Shown here: in pieces, positions 30,552-39,130 of the stretch
How positions within the stretch are numbered: the first letter of the stretch is position 1
Layout of the letters: the number at the start of each line of letters is the position of its first letter
Assembly: GCA_910890315.1 (NCBI GenBank)
Contig: CAJVGD010000025.1
Span: 124,001-188,000 of the forward strand
Direction: 5' to 3'
Origin: Serendipita indica DSM 11827
Lineage: Eukaryota > Basidiomycota > Agaricomycetes > Sebacinales > Serendipitaceae
Length of the DNA: 64,000 nt
Position numbers and translations under genes: made by a program
Notes under the pieces: model-generated
Database searches by the model: none
The model's input: the letters and a program-made list of their open reading frames with translations, nothing else
Told to the model about the DNA's origin: nothing

Positions 30552-32869
30552 CTAGAGTCTAGCCCGCTCTGCCTCCATCTCTTTCTTAGCCCGCTCCCTG
30601 AGCTCCTTACGGAGGATCTTGCCGGCCGCACTATATACTCATTAAACAACATCTTTTATAAGTAGAAATTCTCACCTCTTCGGAATCGCTTCAACCACTA
30701 CAACGCCGCCGCGGAGATATTTGTGCTTGGCCACCTGGAATTGTCAGAATATGCGATAGATGTGACAGGAGCGCACACCTTTGACGTTATCCACTTTGCG
30801 ACTTCGCGTTGAAAGACTTCTCGCTCTTGCGCACTGCCAAGTGCTTTTGAGCCGGGCTTGGGGACAATATATGCTCTGATCATCCAGTTAATTTGTGATG
30901 CCGCGGATACAAAGCCTTACCTTGGCAGCTCAGTCTCGTCTTTTTTGCTATATACGCCAATTACGCCCGAGTCGACAATCTCGGGGTGGCTTATCAGGAC
31001 AGCCTCGAGGTCAGCGGGCGGGACTGGAACCATTTTAGCAAGTCTGTATACCAAAATAACCGAAAATACCTTGGAATCCTTTGTATTTGATCAACTCCTT
31101 CTTGCGGTCGACGATGCTATACCATCTAAACTCGTATTAGACAGATATTCGGTGATGTGGATAAAAGCATACCCGTCCTTATCAATTATGGCGACATCTC
31201 CGGTTTGGAACCAGCCATCAGGCGTAATGCTGTTGAGTGTGGCCGACGCGTTATGCAAATATCCCTAGGCACTTTAGCTATATAGCATAATGGGGAAAAC
31301 TTGAGATAGATACCTTCATAATGGATGGCCCACGAAGCCAGAGCTCGCCTCGTTCACCCTCTGGCGCATCCGTCCCATCGTCTCTCACAAGCCTCGCTTC
31401 GAGATTTGGTAGAAGAGGCCCGATTGTCCCCGCCTTGGTATCCCACGTTTCAACAGGATTGAAATGCGCCGTAGGGGATGTTTCTGTCAACCCGTAGCCT
31501 GGAATTGGATGTAAGGCAGCGATACGATGCAAAAGAAGAGATTAACCCTGAACTACTAATGCATTGGAGCCCAGCTTCCTCAGGCGTGCAACGACTTCGA
31601 GCGTCAGATCCTTCCCAAGGGGTGCCGCACCAGAGGTAATGAGCTTGACAGACTTTGTGATCCTTCAGTACACTCCACCACCTAATCAAAGAAAAAAGCG
31701 GGCCTCACCGAGAAATCAAACTTTTCAAACACTGGATTCTTCGCGAGCAGAAGGATGACTGGCGGAACCATGGGTAATACAGACGCACGGTATTTACCAA
31801 TGGCCTTGCCGAACATGGCGACGTCAAAGCCACGGATAATCACCGCAGCAGCACCCTTGGCGATTGGGTAGAGGAGGACTTTGACGAGTCTATTAGATAT
31901 AAGAATACGATCCATGGAGGCTCAAAACGGATACTAACCCGTAAATATGATAACCTGGTAAAAATCCAAGCATCTTATCGACTCCCGGCTCCAGGCGGAT
32001 GAACACCGCCGGGAACATGCACATGATCGCCACTAGATTCTTATGTGTCGTCTATACAGTATTAGTAATCTTACACCTGGATATTCCGATCTCACCTCAA
32101 CGCCCTTTGCCAACCCGGTCGTCCCACTGATCCAAATATCAGCCACCCATCGTGAAGTATCCGAAAATACTGACCTCGAATAACACATTAATGCCGTCTC
32201 ATCTGCATAGCGACCATCAAAGGCTTCTTCCTTGACCATCTTTCCGACGTTTAAAGCCTCTTCAAACACGGTGTATCCTTTATACCGCCGCTTGACATCG
32301 TCACTCAATGTCTGGCTTTCTTTCCAATCCGCAATGATTATCCGCTTCTTCGCTTGACCCTCGTTGATGCCCATGAGTGCAAACGCCTGGATGAGATTAG
32401 GCAAGAGGAGCGGGTGTACGACGACGGCTTTGGCTCCGCAATCGGTCAGCTGATGCTTGATTTCAGGGGGCGTATAACTGCTGTTGATTGGCGAGACTTT
32501 TATCCCAGCGGCGAAGCATCCGTAGAGCGCAATAGCAAAGGAGAGACTATTCGGACTTCACGGCATCAGTATATAGTATATCGGTCGAATAAAGGAGAGT
32601 CACCTGTAAATACTGACGACGTCGCCTCGTTTGAGTACCGGCCCACCATCCGGGTTCTTAGTCCTGAGGACCGCGTGCTCGTCAACGAGTCCCGCTGCGA
32701 AGCGTAGTGCTGCATCACGAAGCTGCCTGCGGCTTAGTGTAGCCTCGGTTGGTGCGTCGATAAAAGCAGGCAAGTTGTGTGCATACGGTCCGTTTTCTGG
32801 GAGGACATGGGTGAAAATAGACTGCGAAGGGATTTCGACATCGGGATAGTTTGACTTGTAGATCTTCAT
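30552..32869 (-). CDS. 4-coumarate-CoA-ligase-like acyl-CoA synthetase
   Basis: Thirteen exons on the minus strand (32869-32604, 32555-32175, 32126-32096, 32051-31939, 31889-31709, 31652-31547, 31498-31314, 31264-31173, 31125-31070, 31023-30921, 30875-30779, 30734-30676, 30630-30552), 582 residues. It belongs to the ANL adenylating enzymes: P-loop SSGTTGLAKGVE, GYHIYG, KLITSGAAPLG, the A5 motif GYGLTETSP, GELWLRGP, the A7 motif GWFQTGDVA, IVDRKKELIKYKGFQVPP and the catalytic Lys in SAAGKILRKEL. It activates a carboxylic acid with ATP and transfers it to CoA. The C-terminal ARL is a known variant of the peroxisomal PTS1 signal, so a peroxisomal site is likely. Substrate cannot be told. Divergent from TANGO2 copy A with 187 bp between starts. 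Confidence 0.92.
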
Positions 32870-33056
32870 CTTGACAACTAAGACGTGCTAGTAAACGGTT
32901 GGGAGAGGCAGAGTCGGCAGACGGATGCGGAGCAGTCGAAGTGTACAAGAGGCCGACTGAGCCTGGGTTTTGCCGCGCCGGACCCGGCTATCGACAGCCC
33001 GGTTGTTCCTGATGATCTAATCGCACTTGGACCCGGCCACTACCCTAGAATCAAAC
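32870..33056. promoter_or_regulatory. Divergent promoter, acyl-CoA ligase / TANGO2 copy A
   Basis: 187 bp between start codons. It carries the 14-mer TTGGACCCGGCCAC, also found at about 23243 upstream of the AMP deaminase gene. This may be chance or a shared promoter motif. Confidence 0.4.
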
Positions 33057-34149
33057 ATGTGTGTAGGCTTCTGGACGACAGAACACCCGGATTATGCGCT
33101 GTACGCATTCATCAATAGACAAGAGGAAAACGTAAACATTGTCGTCTGGATAGAATCTTAGCAAACAACCGCGACGAGTTTCTAGCACGCGAGACGAGAC
33201 ATGCAGCAATGCATCGCTTTGGAGCTGCAGTAGACGATGATGCTGCAAACGCCGTCGTATCAGGCTTGGATGCCCAAGGAGGTGGAACGTGGCTTGGAGT
33301 TAATCGACATGGTCGAATCGCAATGATGCGAGTCGTCTCTTTTAGGAGTCTCACTAACCACTGACAAAAGTTGGATAGTACAAATATCACCGAGGAATTG
33401 CTTCAGCGAAGATCATTGTCAAGAGGACACCTCGTCTCTGACTTTCTCCTATCCGACCCAGCTAAAGAATCTATGCAGGAATACATCGATCGCTTGCTCA
33501 CCATTGGTTCTCAAGAAGGAGCAGAGAGCGAGCGCGACTATGCAGGCTTTAATCTCGTCCTCATCAGCTTTAGCACATATGACTCTCCCGATACAAACCT
33601 GGATAGGAAGCCGCAGATAGCACTCGTGACAAATTCTGGGGCCAGTGGTGTCCTCAGTGCACGCTGGATGAGCCAAGATGACATCTGTCTTGGAGGCATG
33701 TCGAATGGAATCGATGGGAAAACGATGCAATACTGGACAAAGATTGAAGAGGGCAAACAATCTTGCGTAGTCTCCTCGATCAGCCAGACTTGGCAGAGGA
33801 CAATCTCGTGGAGGGCCTCTTTGGGATTCTCTCGTAGGCTTTTCTTTAATGCGGTTAACATGAAATTTGTTAATCGTTGCGCAGTCTGCATACACCGGAA
33901 CCACCTAAAAAAAGAGACGACCTTCGAGCCTCAATCCGCATCGATCCGGTCCACCTGAACATTGGAAGAGGTATCCAAGGATGGTACGGTACACGCACTT
34001 CTACCGTACTCCTCATTCGACGTAAAGATAACTCGGTCCGCTTCCATGAACGAGACATTTGGCAAATGAACAAGACAATGTCCGAGGGGCCAATATTAGC
34101 TACACCAGGCGACACTGACAGGATACTTGAATTCCAGTTGTCAGAATAG
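33057..34149 (+). CDS. TANGO2-family (NRDE) protein, copy A, frame-disrupted
   Basis: Exons 33057-33100, 33154-33327, 33379-33833 and 33885-34149, about 312 codons. Family signature: start MCVGFW, the NNRDEF box, GGGTWLGVNRHGRIAM, TNITEE, SRGHLVSDFLL and a C-terminal YGTRTSTVLL block. The intron at 33328 needs a GC donor (GCGAGT), which restores the conserved AMITNITEE junction; the same junction in copy B also needs a GC donor. Near 33772 one base is missing: the frame of GKQ and that of LRSLLDQPDLAEDNL differ, explained by a T run shortened by one. TANGO2 proteins act in Golgi/ER organisation in flies and have been linked to heme export and to coenzyme A or lipid metabolism. Its neighbour is a heme oxygenase. 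Confidence 0.78.
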
Positions 34150-34168
34150 GTGGATATCGTTATACTTG

Positions 34169-35247
34169 CTATGCATTCAAGGTAGTGGACGTCATTGACG
34201 AGGCAGTGTAGAAGAGGAATAAAACTGTGCCAATGAGCAAACCCATGAATAACGTGAATGTATTCGAAGGGGTCAATGCATTGGACTTGTCAACGGTGTC
34301 CATTGGCTCGAGCTTTGGGGGTGTCGTCGATGGGTTGGGCGAGGTGGGTAATGTCATTGTTTCAAGGTGGGTTGGAGGACGGAGTGCAGTGAACAAATCT
34401 TGATTCAACTTGAAGGCGAGGATTGCCTCGTCGACCAACGCCGCTTCACAAGAAAGTATGAGCGCAATAGGAATGAATAAAGGAAGCCCACCTTTGAGAT
34501 TATGGTCGTCACCAACACCCAAATCCATACCGTCGCGGTACCAATCCTTGAGGTCCTTCATTTCCTGCATCCCCGCCTCACCCTCCCCTGCACTCGTGAC
34601 GAATGTATAGAATTTGACTCCTTCACCGGTATTTGGCAGATTATATACTTTGGCAATCCGTCGTCGGATGAACTGGCCGCCGGAGAGGTCACCAAGGTAG
34701 CGTACGTATGCGTGCGCCAATAAAAGCCTAGCATCCCCGTCTTTGAGATTGGTTGGATTAGACGAAATATGGCGTAGTCGATGGACGTATGCAGAGACCT
34801 GTGACGGCATGTTCGATGTAAACGAGAGATAGGCGGGATGATCCTTTAACGCGTGTGAATCCGCTCCAAGAAAATACGCAATATCCAGCGCGATGTATTC
34901 CTTTCGAGCGAGCACAGAGGGATTGTAAGTTGTCTTGAGCACCGGATGGGCTTGGTGGCGTCTAGCGCCTCCTCTAGCGTCCTATCCAACCGCGTCAAAT
35001 TGGCTTCCCAGAGACCAGATAAGACATACGAGTATATAACATGGAGCATCATGAGGAATCGCACATATTCTGAGCGATCGAGTTCTCCGCGGGTCAGCCA
35101 CCCAGCACCTGGGGAGTGTTCCGCTTGCTCATGCGCCTGCTTGGTGCCATGGCGAAGGAGAACAGATACAGGCTCTGATAAATCCTAGATGCTTTGCTCA
35201 GATATTATACCCTCTAAATCCTGGAATAATCGTACTGGGTTCACCAT
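34169..35247 (-). CDS. Heme oxygenase, tail-anchored, frame-disrupted
   Basis: A 3-bp first exon carrying only the ATG (35247-35245) is the best fit, followed by 35184-34169; about 339 residues. The HO fold is clear: proximal His in RHGTKQAHEQAEH, YVRFLMMLHVIYS, the hallmark GDLSGGQFIRRRI distal helix, and VYNLPNTGEGVKFY. After a Pro/Thr-rich linker a hydrophobic segment (LFMGLLIGTVLFLFYTA) near the C-terminus should anchor the enzyme in the ER membrane, as in Hmx1. It opens heme to biliverdin, iron and CO. Near 34958 the frame changes between TLEEALDA and HQAHPVLKTTYNP; one base missing from a C run would explain it. Convergent with TANGO2 copy A (stops 20 bp apart) and directly downstream of copy B. 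Confidence 0.85.
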
Positions 35248-35414
35248 GAGCAGATATGGCCAGGTCCAAGCGTGTATCCGCGCTTTGATTGGCGGTCTGG
35301 ACCAAATCATACGGCCAAGCAAGGGACAAAGGTCCGGGCTCCGAGATTATCTGATAATCGGTTTCCAAGCATATCATGGCTTCTATGAGAACCCTACAAA
35401 TAACACCAATCAAC

Positions 35415-36949
35415 CTAAAGGTACAACCAGAATATATGTTCCCTGTCTTCTTTGCGATCTCCCATCACAGGGAACAAGCCCTGTTCTGCGATGGGCAACC
35501 GACACTCGTGCTCTGCTTCCACGACTTCTCCAGGTATAATAGGACTCATGCATCTACATTCTGAAAACGGACTGGCAGCCCGTTCGAGGTCGCTACTCGA
35601 CAGCCGCCAGATATCCCGTTCGCGGTACACGACACACCCATCTTTCCGGACAAGCAAGACGGTCGATGTGCGTGTCGCGTACCATCCCTCGACCGTCCTC
35701 GCTCCTCCGTCGACCGCAATCTCGAGATGGCGTGGATCGACACGCACCGAGCCAAAGAAATCGTCGCGGGCGTTTATATCCGTGTCTTTAAGTCTGATTT
35801 AGGAGCATAAGACGAAATATCAGATGCAAAGAGAGTTACGTACGCAAGCACGTCAAATACCCCTTCTATCAAAGCTTCCTCCCGATCTTGCTTCGTCTTG
35901 GCTTTGTCTGCTTTGACCACATCACAATCGGACCCTTCTTCTCGAACACACTCCAGGTGCGCCGGGGCACTGGGATGGAAGCTATCATGGCGATGGGCAA
36001 CGTAACACCTGCACCTCTTCGTAGTTTCAGTCGAATGTGCTCCTAGCTCAATCTCTCGACGAATAAGGTCAGAAAGAGCTCTTTTCCCGAGTTCAATCTT
36101 TGTCCACATCTCCATCGTGCTTCCATCAACGCCATTCGACACTCCTCCGAGTCTTGCCTCGTCCCCCTCGAGCCAACGCGCCGTCAGTCGACCTCCTTCT
36201 CCCGAGTTTGTCATGAGAGCCATACGGGGTACAATCTCTGGCAATATTTCGTCTTCATGCTCTCCGGCATTCTGAGGGACAGAGCGAGGTTTGGCATCTT
36301 CTTGTGCCATGCTGACGAGAAGAAGATTGAATCCAGCATAGTCATACTCCACCTCTTCTTCATCGCCAAGCTCGGGCATCTCCATTACGCTCAGCATATT
36401 TGTAGCTCCCAAGCCCTGCGAGATAGCCTTGGTGGTTACCGGTTTGGTTCGAGTGGTGGTAGAAGGTAACGGCGTTGAGGGTGGTCGATTAGTGAGTCTC
36501 TTGATAAATTGCTCCATATTCTCCGTCTTGGGGTCAGAGAGCAAAAAGTCGGAGACGAGGTGGCCGCGCGAGTAGATGTGGTGGTGATGCGGCTGTTCAG
36601 TAATATTTGTTCTGCGACGACTTAGTACGCATTCAAAAGGGGTGAAAAAAAAGGACGTGCAGCATGGCAATTCTGCCGTGGCGGTTTACCCCAAGCCATG
36701 TCCCGCCTGCCTTTGCATCCAAGCCGGAAATGACTTCACTTCCCTCGACGTGCGTATGATGCGGGTGTTTTGACGCCGAGCATGAACGGAAATGATGTAC
36801 AGAGGCTGGTTTGTGGGTCGCGATAGAAACTCGTCACGGTTATTCGCTAGTATCCTACCAGAAAAGATCATTAGTAACGCTGCCGAATTGTCCAAAGGCG
36901 CATACAAGGCGTATTCAGGATGTTCCGTCGTCCAAAATCCAACACACAT
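35415..36949 (-). CDS. TANGO2-family (NRDE) protein, copy B, frame-disrupted
   Basis: Exons 36949-36906, 36854-36661, 36611-35844 and 35793-35415, about 461 residues. Same blocks and intron positions as copy A: MCVGFWTTEHPEYAL, ILANNRDEFLSRPT, GLDAKAGGTWLGVNRHGRIAM, TNITEQP, SRGHLVSDFLL and YATRTSTVLLV. It is longer because of acidic and Lys-rich insertions in the third exon. The intron at 36660-36612 starts with GC (GCACGT). Near 36811 one A is missing from an AAAA run: the frame before (RPT) and after (KPASVHHF) differ by one. The two copies are well diverged (frequent substitutions and different insertions), so the duplication is old, yet the GC donor has been kept in both. It lies upstream of the heme oxygenase on the same strand, 168 bp apart. 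Confidence 0.78.
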
Positions 36950-38042
36950 GGTTCCTTGACGTTTGGTTTTGACTCTGAGATGTTATGCGGAATTAATCGT
37001 CCATTCAGGGCTTTTAAGTACTGGTCGATAAATCGACCGAGTCTAGACTACAAAGAGCCGGGGAGCCAGAGCGGCAACTGGTACTTCCGGAAATCATGTT
37101 TGGGGTCATGAGGACATCTCTCCCAAGACGAGTCCAAGACTTTTATTGCTGTTTGCACCAAAGTTGTCACAGCCGCCTTTCGACCGCGTCCAACTTTGAA
37201 CCGTCCTTGAGCCTCACTATGCTGGCCTACCGTATAGATAGCTACATTTTTGAAATCCTCATGTTTGGGGCAAGCTTTCTGGAATATAGAGAGATGTTCG
37301 TTCAGAGATTTTGCACAGGGCAAATTTTTAAAAAGGCCTCCCGCGTGATATGAAGCAGGGAGCAGGATTCTAAAAGCTCAGTTCATCTCGTTTCATGCTC
37401 TTAAATAAGATTTATCCTATCAAAGCGGCAACGAAGTCCTCTCGCGTTCTTGTCAAAAAATGACTTCTGTGCAAGACCTCATTTAAACCATGTCAAAGCG
37501 TGTTCATAATACTGAGCTATCTCTGTAGTATCCAAAAAGTTTCGATTTATCGCAGCTAGACTGGTCCTGATGCACCTTCATCGCAAGACACTGTCCCCCC
37601 AGATCTTAGCAATATTGTACAGATCATGTTCTGAATCAAACCAATGGGTGCCAAAGTAGAAAAAAATCGTTGCTGTTCCATGTTGGAGGCACCTGCCCAT
37701 ACTCTCCTTGTCGCCAGTGCGATATGAAAAGTGGCTCAAAAGGCCGCTATCTATTCTCAACAGGTTCTTATACATCACCGTGCTTACTCAGATACGGGAT
37801 TTCCCTCTTTGCAGAGTTGAACTGTCGACTGAGAGACGAGTCATAAAACGAGGTACTACTTCTTCAATTGGGGGCGCAAACAATTCTCAGAGGTCCGTAT
37901 GTTCAATAACTACTGATGATATCCCCCAGCACCTTGCCATAGCACAATACTGAATGTCGCGTCAGCGTGTTAGCGGCGTCGCTTTGGTTAACTCGGTGTT
38001 AAATTGTTATATAATAGCATAATATCGTATTTGAGATCTATT
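36950..38042. other. Gene-poor region with an inverted partial repeat
   Basis: No supported gene. At about 37139-37196 it has a near-identical inverted copy of 38213-38271, within the last exon of the secreted-protein gene. The rest is AT-rich with short open frames only and looks like decayed sequence. Confidence 0.45.
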
Positions 38043-38619
38043 TTACGCGCTTTTGAAACGACCGAGTATCCTTTTGCACATGTCGCGGAAATGAGGTGTG
38101 CAAAAGGTTGCCTTTTCTGGGCAATAACGCCATGTCAAGATAGCCCCATACAGCCCCATTTTGACGCTGTAGTTTGCGTGCCGACCAATGAATTTCATGG
38201 GGCGAGGTGATGGTGCAAAGTTTGACGCGGTCGAAAAGTGAGTGTGACAACTTCGGTGCAAACAGCAATAATAACCGTCATATCCGCCTCCACCACCATG
38301 CCGTTGGGCGTACGCCGAGCCGGCCTGGCTGACCATATTACCAACCATAGCCCTGGCTGTTTCGCTGTGATAAAGCCTCTTCCCTGCGCTCACGACTGTG
38401 TGCACCTGAGGAACTTTGAGCACATGGTGAATATTGTGGGGATGCCCAACTTACCAGCCCTCCTCGTCGAGGTTCAGGCTCTGGTTCACGCCGTACGAGG
38501 TGATCCGCTTCATGATGAGTAACAACGGTTACGTCTTTGCTTGTAGCAGCCACAGGTGCACAGGCTGCCTGACTGACTGAGAGGGCGAGGAGGACAAGAA
38601 CGGCTTTTGGAAAGTACAT
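38043..38619 (-). CDS. Putative secreted protein
   Basis: Two exons (38619-38455, 38405-38043), 175 residues. A strong signal peptide covers the first 20 residues (FPKAVLVLLALSVSQAACA). The next 35 residues include a basic/acidic stretch with RREPEPEPRRGG, where RR is a possible processing site. The second exon opens with HTVVSAGKRLYHSETARA and a Gly-rich HGGGGGYDGYY, the pattern of small secreted proteins with a C-terminal Gly/Tyr-rich domain. The last 80 codons, which overlap the inverted repeat, look less protein-like, so the true stop may come earlier through another splice. No family recognised. Confidence 0.45.
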
Positions 38620-39130
38620 TGTAAATAAACTGCCTTTTTTTCAGTGGCCGTTTGGGATCTACACTTGAGCACTCACCAAAAGGGGCACCAGGCCAAGACG
38701 AAGGAATGAGGGAATCAAGTCGTTTGATAACGCACAGTCTATATACCCTTGTATAGTTGTATGCCGACGTTCGGAAAGGCATTGACGCCAGCAACTGAGC
38801 TTTCTACCCAGAGTCTGTGAACATTGCTAGAGCGTACTCCACGGACTTGATAAGCGGGTGTCCGCCGTTGGCCGTGAACCAGCTGCCGTCTATGCCACAC
38901 ACGAAGATTCACTTGTGAATTCCGACTCAAAGGCAGCCCCATGCCAAGTCTGTACAGCACGACGGCAACAAAAGGCCGAAGCGCTGCTCGTCGCTAGTCT
39001 GATAGAGAGGCTATTAGTTGAGAAACAGACTCTAATAACATGCGTTGTTTGGCGTCCACCCATCGTTGTCCAGAAAACATGGGGAGGCAGGGATCAAAGT
39101 AAAGCAAAGCTTGGTTCTCACCGCCTTGGA
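38620..39130. other. Intergenic region 38620-39130
   Basis: Divergent promoter region between the secreted-protein gene and the adaptin-binding gene. A few open frames occur but none has family support. Confidence 0.4.

What the first reader, a model, noticed from the sequence alone, without database searches (positions are those of the whole stretch)
33057..36949. TANGO2 - heme oxygenase - TANGO2 gene cluster
Two diverged TANGO2-family genes flank a tail-anchored heme oxygenase within 3.9 kb. TANGO2-family proteins (HRG-9 in worms) have been reported to move heme out of storage sites, though this is debated. Heme oxygenase degrades heme. Clustering of supply and degradation steps would suggest a heme or iron recycling unit. 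I know of no described fungal cluster of this kind. The presence of the acyl-CoA ligase next to copy A may be incidental.
Basis: partly seen in the sequence, partly recalled or inferred. Interest (0 to 1): 0.78.

Follow-up and report, generated by a model that had tools for sequence, protein, structure and literature searches.

The report
TANGO2 pair flanking fungal heme oxygenase
In the root fungus Serendipita indica the two TANGO2 genes found in the assembly sit either side of the one heme oxygenase gene found; the arrangement is real and looks old, but nothing here shows that the genes work together on heme.

Summary
Two TANGO2 genes (A, +, 33057-34149; B, -, 36949-35415) flank a heme oxygenase (HO, -, 35247-34169) with a predicted C-terminal membrane anchor. 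They are the only PF05742 and PF01126 matches found in the assembly, which fits Serendipita indica. A and B share three intron positions, one a GC-AG intron, keep the putative Ntn-hydrolase residues and are near saturation at four-fold sites (21 of 73 identical): old duplicates under constraint. A, B and HO each carry one -1 frame break; assembly error seems likelier than decay.

The heme/iron unit is unproven. TANGO2's heme role is disputed, and a lipid role makes the acyl-CoA ligase 187 bp from A as notable as HO. HO may instead serve the one phytochrome found, about 54 kb away. In bacteria, 0 of 80 TANGO2 loci showed an HO, and none of 8 genomes holding both showed them adjacent. Fungal synteny, the decisive test, could not be run. 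My leading reading is neighbours without shared heme function (0.5).

The parts
33057..34149 (+). TANGO2 copy A; exons 33057-33100, 33154-33327, 33379-33833, 33885-34149; one -1 frame break at 33760/33763
   Evidence: Splice model; PF05742; break; aligns with human TANGO2 8sv7 (E 1.5e-14)
34169..35247 (-). Heme oxygenase with predicted C-terminal transmembrane anchor (34258-34202); exons 35247-35236, 35184-35030, 34981-34169; one -1 frame break at 34957/34954
   Evidence: PF01126; PDB heme oxygenases, best E 5.5e-25; introns; anchor segment mean Kyte-Doolittle hydropathy 2.02 over 19 residues
35415..36949 (-). TANGO2 copy B; exons 36949-36906, 36854-36661, 36611-35844, 35793-35415; one -1 frame break at 36815; long insertions relative to A (an unrecognised intron in them is not excluded)
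   Evidence: Splice model; PF05742; 45% identity to A over 266 aligned columns
30552..32869 (-). AMP-binding acyl-CoA ligase (ACL), head to head with copy A, exons not fully modelled; C-terminus ...ARL resembles a peroxisomal PTS1 signal (rule recalled)
   Evidence: PF00501 55.7 bits; NCBIfam long-chain fatty-acid-CoA ligase models, all below their cut-offs; nearest PDB 7kyd fatty-acyl-CoA synthetase (E 4.1e-6); ends
32870..33056 (.). 187-bp shared intergenic region between the starts of ACL and copy A (possible bidirectional promoter)
   Evidence: Coordinates; one HGATAR site
34150..34168 (.). 19 bp between the stop codons of the convergent genes A and HO; their 3' UTRs overlap if together longer than this
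   Evidence: ORF ends; sequence
33328..33378 (+). GC-AG intron 2 of copy A
   Evidence: the GC start keeps the frame into exon 3
36612..36660 (-). GC-AG intron 2 of copy B, at the homologous position

Best explanation
The locus is an old inverted pair of TANGO2 paralogues with the one heme oxygenase found in the genome lying between them, in a gene-dense fungal genome, and with no heme function shared by the three genes. HO makes biliverdin, CO and iron from heme at a membrane, most likely serving stress signalling and the phytochrome. The TANGO2 proteins are cytosolic or mitochondrial cysteine Ntn-hydrolase-like proteins acting on acyl-CoA-type ligands. Shown here: gene identities, copy number as far as the profile searches reach, age of the duplication, constraint on both copies, retained putative active-site residues. 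Inferred: functions, localisation and the absence of a joint pathway.
For: The neighbours that have a Pfam match are ordinary: RhoGAP, PKA regulatory subunit, AIM3/BBC1, Hikeshi, UAA transporter, EFL1. TANGO2 and HO are not linked in the bacteria sampled: 0 of 80 TANGO2 loci carry an HO-like ORF in the flanks held; in one class 78 of 247 genomes have TANGO2, of which 8 of 78 also have HO and in none are the two shown near each other; in a second class 8 of 185 genomes have HO and 0 of those 8 have TANGO2. No 8-mer is shared by all three upstream regions. Published structural and binding work favours a lipid-type ligand for TANGO2.
Against: HO lies inside the pair rather than beside it, with 19 and 167 bp gaps. 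The TANGO2 duplication is old, so if HO was there from the start the order has lasted. HGATAR sites, a type bound by fungal iron regulators (recalled), are slightly enriched upstream: 4 in 547 bp against a control mean of 1.44, with 4.6% of random draws as high; one 7-mer is shared by all three regions, as in 62 of 500 control draws. Two other studies support a TANGO2 role in heme movement. The bacterial samples are poor proxies for fungi, and many of the 80 loci are from anaerobes, where HO would not be expected.
Confidence: 0.5

Rival explanations
1. Heme supply-and-degradation unit, in a sharper form: TANGO2 helps heme leave mitochondria and the membrane-anchored HO converts it at once to biliverdin, CO and iron. 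The biliverdin goes to the phytochrome and the iron is recovered.
For: Both families were found only at this locus. Knockdown of human TANGO2 strongly inhibited heme transfer from mitochondria to GAPDH in cells, and TANGO2 associates with the exporter FLVCR1b (PMC12381273 passages). Deletion of two Alternaria HO genes gave a phenotype like phytochrome deletion and the enzymes bound phytochrome, with assembly proposed at mitochondria (PMC10219052 passage). S. indica has one PHY match, on the same contig about 54 kb from HO. Slight HGATAR enrichment upstream.
Against: Zebrafish, yeast and worm heme findings were not or only partly reproduced; no specific heme site in crystals. No prokaryotic linkage found. 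A 54 kb gap to the phytochrome is not a cluster. The tail after the membrane segment has no basic residue, which by recalled rules suits the ER at least as well as mitochondria. An FLVCR homologue was not looked for.
Confidence: 0.22
2. The meaningful pair is ACL and copy A, not HO and TANGO2: a fatty acyl-CoA ligase and an acyl-CoA-binding, Ntn-hydrolase-like TANGO2 driven from one 187-bp bidirectional promoter, acting in acyl-CoA handling. HO is a bystander.
For: Purified human TANGO2 binds acyl-CoA, and changing its NRDE motif abolishes this (PMC11867700 passages); the crystal structure suggests fatty-acid derivatives as substrates (PMC13044924 passages). NRDE and the residues listed for the putative active site are present in A and B. 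PF00501 matched 16 pieces at about 8 places in this assembly, so an AMP-binding neighbour is not trivially common.
Against: Divergent close neighbours are frequent in compact fungal genomes (recalled); the PF00501 count is a lower bound (15 of 21 candidates scored). ACL ends in a PTS1-like ARL while A and B do not, so they may sit in different compartments. No expression data. The ACL fragment used found nothing in bacterial flanks, but it was short and had no control, so this does not count either way.
Confidence: 0.2
3. The genes are decaying pseudogenes.
For: One frame break in each of A, B and HO, while some other long stretches of the assembly are open.
Against: All three are single -1 breaks; an HSP70-family gene is also broken; the published assembly is nanopore-based; A and B show dN 0.27 with four-fold sites near saturation; HO keeps the histidine motif and GDLSGGQ.
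Confidence: 0.05

Closest known systems
TANGO2 / HRG-9 / HtpA family (PF05742, cysteine Ntn-hydrolase fold)
   Same: MC start, LIL-NRDE, GGTWLG, SRG, G-x-S-N...W-x-K and Y-x-TR motifs; the residues listed for the putative active site
   Different: Two anciently diverged copies a gene apart; B has long insertions and is 462 residues as modelled against 276 in human; Lys56 of the human sulfate site falls in a gap in both copies
Eukaryotic-type heme oxygenase (PF01126; human HO-1/HO-2, fungal HMX1)
   Same: GTK-x-AH-x-x-AE histidine motif, GDLSGGQ, C-terminal hydrophobic segment
   Different: Lies between two TANGO2 genes
Ganoderma lucidum HMX1/CO pathway
   Same: A basidiomycete heme oxygenase; there heat-induced and acting through CO (PMC9659044 abstract and passages)
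   Different: Its gene neighbourhood was not described in the passages I saw; stress response untested here
Alternaria heme oxygenase-phytochrome system
   Same: HO and a fungal phytochrome histidine kinase in one genome (PMC10219052 passage)
   Different: Two HO genes there, one found here; physical interaction untested here

Membership tests
TANGO2 family (PF05742) | Profile score over the curated cut-off | tested here: met
   3 of 3 A pieces and 3 of 4 B pieces over 22.6 bits; the fourth B piece 17.9
TANGO2 family (PF05742) | N-terminal Cys2 with Asn25, Asp27, Asn157, Lys166 | tested here: met
   Residue list from PMC13044924 passages. Cys2 read in the models (the human fragment used starts at residue 17). 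Positions of Asn25, Asp27, Asn157 and Lys166 invariant across 10 sequences including A and B; the three-sequence alignment had placed Asn157 differently
TANGO2 family (PF05742) | Acyl-CoA or heme binding | not testable with these tools
   Needs purified protein; the heme-binding Tyr108 reported for HtpA was not mapped onto A and B
Heme oxygenase (PF01126) | Profile score over the curated cut-off | tested here: met
   77.8 and 25.3 bits against 23
Heme oxygenase (PF01126) | Proximal histidine and GDLSGGQ distal helix | tested here: met
   alignment with human HO-2 (GTKEAHDRAE / GTKQAHEQAE; GDLSGGQ in both); role of the His recalled
Heme oxygenase (PF01126) | C-terminal membrane anchor (eukaryotic type) | tested here: met
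   by hydropathy only: FTLFMGLLIGTVLFLFYTA followed by ten residues; organelle not determined
Functional heme gene cluster | Conserved adjacency in related fungi | not testable with these tools
   No fungal genome collection other than the window's own assembly
Functional heme gene cluster | Shared regulation | tested here: inconclusive
   no shared 8-mer; one shared 7-mer (62 of 500 control draws as many); HGATAR 4 against control mean 1.44 (4.6% of draws as high)
Functional heme gene cluster | Linkage of the two families elsewhere | tested here: not met
   Bacteria only:

The most novel reading that the evidence does not exclude
A genomic unit for making biliverdin: two TANGO2 proteins of divided roles pass mitochondrial heme to the genome's only heme oxygenase, feeding phytochrome light sensing and iron recovery in a plant-root symbiont. 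It would be genetic-linkage support for a TANGO2 heme role at a time when that role is disputed.
Probability: 0.18. Interest if true: 0.75.

Novelty: new member of a known kind. Interest (0 to 1): 0.4.

Why it matters
Whether TANGO2 proteins handle heme or acyl-CoA is an open dispute with a human disease behind it. S. indica puts both candidate partners, a heme oxygenase and a fatty acyl-CoA ligase, next to its TANGO2 genes, so one synteny and expression survey across Sebacinales could weigh the two readings against each other in a fungus that can be cultured.

Tried and rejected
Pseudogene reading: judged unlikely (see rivals). A second apparent frame break in B between exons 2 and 3 vanished once a GC-AG intron was recognised at the homologous place in A and B. 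An apparent extra stretch in HO proved to be an intron at 35029-34982. Shared promoter words: nothing clear. Bacterial neighbourhood as a stand-in for fungal synteny: 0 of 80 loci with HO, but 80 were kept of 445 confirmed, many from anaerobes and some with short flanks; the search held no HO-positive control of its own, though the same HO query found bacterial-sized HO chains in the PDB. In one search, 7 of the 8 genomes have the two genes on different contigs, so closeness across contig ends is not excluded there; in the eighth they are about 41 kb apart. Before that, 1 of 6 TANGO2 genomes tried had an HO, and it is counted again among the 8. YN00 failed and NG86 dS was undefined, so age rests on 21 of 73 identical four-fold sites; over all third positions identity was 0.379 against 0.252 expected at random, as the protein constraint would give. 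Literature: searches for TANGO2 with heme, with fungal gene cluster and with heme oxygenase, for NRDE family with heme oxygenase, and for heme oxygenase with Piriformospora indica, basidiomycete or gene cluster: among the papers listed, no title or abstract start describes such a locus. Not all were listed (for example 15 of 203, 30 of 40), only open-licence PMC papers are held, and only passages of ten papers were read.
Full report
Identity of the genome. The window is C25:124001-188000 of a 24,708,602-base, 55-contig assembly. A phosphate symporter elsewhere in it is identical to PDB chain 7sp5 at 248 of 250 aligned residues, differing only at the two ends of the stretch; that this structure is the Piriformospora (Serendipita) indica transporter is recalled. 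A published S. indica resequencing reports 57 contigs, 24.7 Mb, GC 50.8%, 9,441 predicted genes and MinION R9.5 reads polished with Pilon (PMC8385953 passages), which fits apart from two contigs. The organism is a root endophyte of the Sebacinales (order named in the same passages).

The observation. Copy A (+, 33057-34149), HO (-, 35247-34169) and copy B (-, 36949-35415) are real. Whole-genome six-frame searches with PF05742 gave four matches, all pieces of A and B, and with PF01126 two matches, both pieces of this HO. So each family was found only here, as far as those searches reach.

Gene structure. A and B share three intron positions. Intron 1 lies just before the LANNRDEF block, and removing it rebuilds ALILANNRDEF. 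Intron 2 begins with GC in both (GCGAGT, GCACGT) and its removal gives MITN and MLTN, like the LTN of human TANGO2. Intron 3 precedes the C-terminal block. HO has an intron between HVIYS and TLEEALDA and a short first exon. After splicing, one break remains in each gene: A at 33760/33763, B at 36815, HO at 34957/34954, each short of one nucleotide. A HSP70-family gene on C44 (Hsp110/SSE1-like, name recalled) shows a break with no room for an intron: its two profile matches overlap by 10 bases in different frames. Two more places, on C36 and C11, show abutting HSP70 pieces but were not inspected, while the longest HSP70 matches, on C40 and C13, have no stop. Together with the sequencing method this points to assembly error; the reads were not available to prove it.

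Age and constraint. A and B are 45% identical over 266 aligned columns, with a second segment at 46% over 82. Over 211 codons from the conserved blocks they are 68% identical in protein, with NG86 dN 0.27 and only 21 of 73 four-fold sites identical, close to what random bases would give. The blocks were chosen for clean alignment, so dN is an underestimate for the whole genes. Both copies have therefore long been kept by selection. If the duplication happened in place, the arrangement may be old, but HO could also have arrived later.

Proteins. In an alignment with human TANGO2 and seven bacterial relatives, the positions of human Asn25, Asp27, Asn157 and Lys166 are invariant in all ten sequences, and those of Arg32 and Arg88 too; Lys56, the third residue of the human sulfate site, falls in a gap in A and B. 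Cys2 is read directly in the models. These are the residues named for the putative active site and the sulfate site in the human crystal structure (PMC13044924 passages). HO aligns with human HO-2 through the histidine motif and GDLSGGQ and ends in a 19-residue hydrophobic segment and ten residues.

Surroundings. ACL (-, 32869-30552) starts 187 bp from A. It matches PF00501 and is nearest to fatty acyl-CoA synthetases in the PDB at modest scores; NCBIfam long-chain models match below their cut-offs. Thirty window ORF pieces were scanned with Pfam: ten from these four genes and twenty others. Of the twenty, nine had a match (RhoGAP; PKA regulatory subunit; AIM3/BBC1; MTA_R1, below its cut-off; UAA transporter; three pieces of an EFL1-like GTPase, one of them below cut-off; Hikeshi) and eleven had none. 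No other heme or iron gene was seen among them; the rest of the window's ORFs were not scanned.

Does the pairing occur elsewhere? Only bacteria could be tested. From 445 confirmed TANGO2 stretches in genome contigs, the 80 kept contained no HO-like ORF in the flanks held, while the TANGO2 query found all 80. In the class of Marinoscillum (L058), 78 of 247 genomes have TANGO2 and 8 of those 78 have HO: one with both on a contig about 41 kb apart, seven on different contigs. In the class of L083, 8 of 185 genomes have HO, one of them below the cut-off, and 0 of those 8 have TANGO2. So TANGO2 does not depend on HO, nor HO on TANGO2, in these bacteria. This says little about fungi.

A client for HO. 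The assembly has a single PHY match, at C25:101433-101651, on the same contig. The region around it holds a PAADIPAQVR motif typical of phytochrome GAF domains (motif recalled), PHY over its cut-off, HATPase_c in two pieces (one over, one below cut-off) and a response-regulator match below cut-off: most likely a fungal phytochrome histidine kinase, about 54 kb from HO. In Alternaria, HO deletion resembles phytochrome deletion (PMC10219052 passage; the primary paper is not held). This gives HO a likely job that needs no TANGO2. A basidiomycete HO, HMX1 of Ganoderma, responds to heat and acts through CO (PMC9659044 passages), and worm hrg-9 responds to oxidative stress (PMC12782551 abstract), so a shared stress response is a further link that I could not test.

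What TANGO2 does. [quoted passage not shown] Against: findings in worm, yeast and zebrafish not or only partly reproduced (PMC12782551 passages; PMC10499024 passage) and no specific heme site in crystals. For lipid: acyl-CoA binding lost when NRDE is changed (PMC11867700 passages). The locus offers neighbours for both camps.

Regulation. Across 547 bp of upstream sequence there are 4 HGATAR sites against a control mean of 1.44, and 4.6% of random draws from the window reach 4; no 8-mer is shared by all three regions. This is marginal and was one of several patterns looked at.

Verdict. The arrangement is real, apparently old, and not described in the paper listings I saw. The functional claim rests on adjacency alone. 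I put neutral linkage at 0.5, a heme unit at 0.22, an ACL-TANGO2 lipid pair at 0.20 and decay at 0.05.

Noticed in passing
window 37143-38271: A 1,129-bp element with 63-nt inverted terminal repeats (87% complementary) lies upstream of copy B; related sequence occurs at two places on contig C22 of the same genome (71-87% identity in pieces). Looks like a non-autonomous DNA transposon.
   Followed up: partly
L101 (G000:C25:97500-106500), about 2.0-6.4 kb: The only PHY match found in the assembly, a likely phytochrome histidine kinase, lies on the same contig as the only heme oxygenase found, about 54 kb away.
   Followed up: partly
window 33328-33378 and 36612-36660: A GC-AG intron kept at the same position in two paralogues that are near saturation at four-fold sites, suggesting that the GC splice site itself is old.
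   Followed up: no
L012 / L013 (G000:C44:1152880-1154213): HSP70-family (Hsp110/SSE1-like) gene with a frame break and no room for an intron, a sign of residual indel errors in this assembly; automatic gene calls here should be read with care.
   Followed up: partly
L020-L057 and others: Many of the bacterial TANGO2 relatives kept are in records named as syntrophs, sulfate reducers and other anaerobes (Syntrophaceae, Smithella, Desulfosporosinus), where an oxygen-dependent heme oxygenase would have no use (lifestyles recalled).
   Followed up: no
window 38338-38640: Small minus-strand ORF upstream of copy B whose translation holds a signal-peptide-like stretch (MYFPKAVLVLLALSVSQAACA).
   Followed up: no
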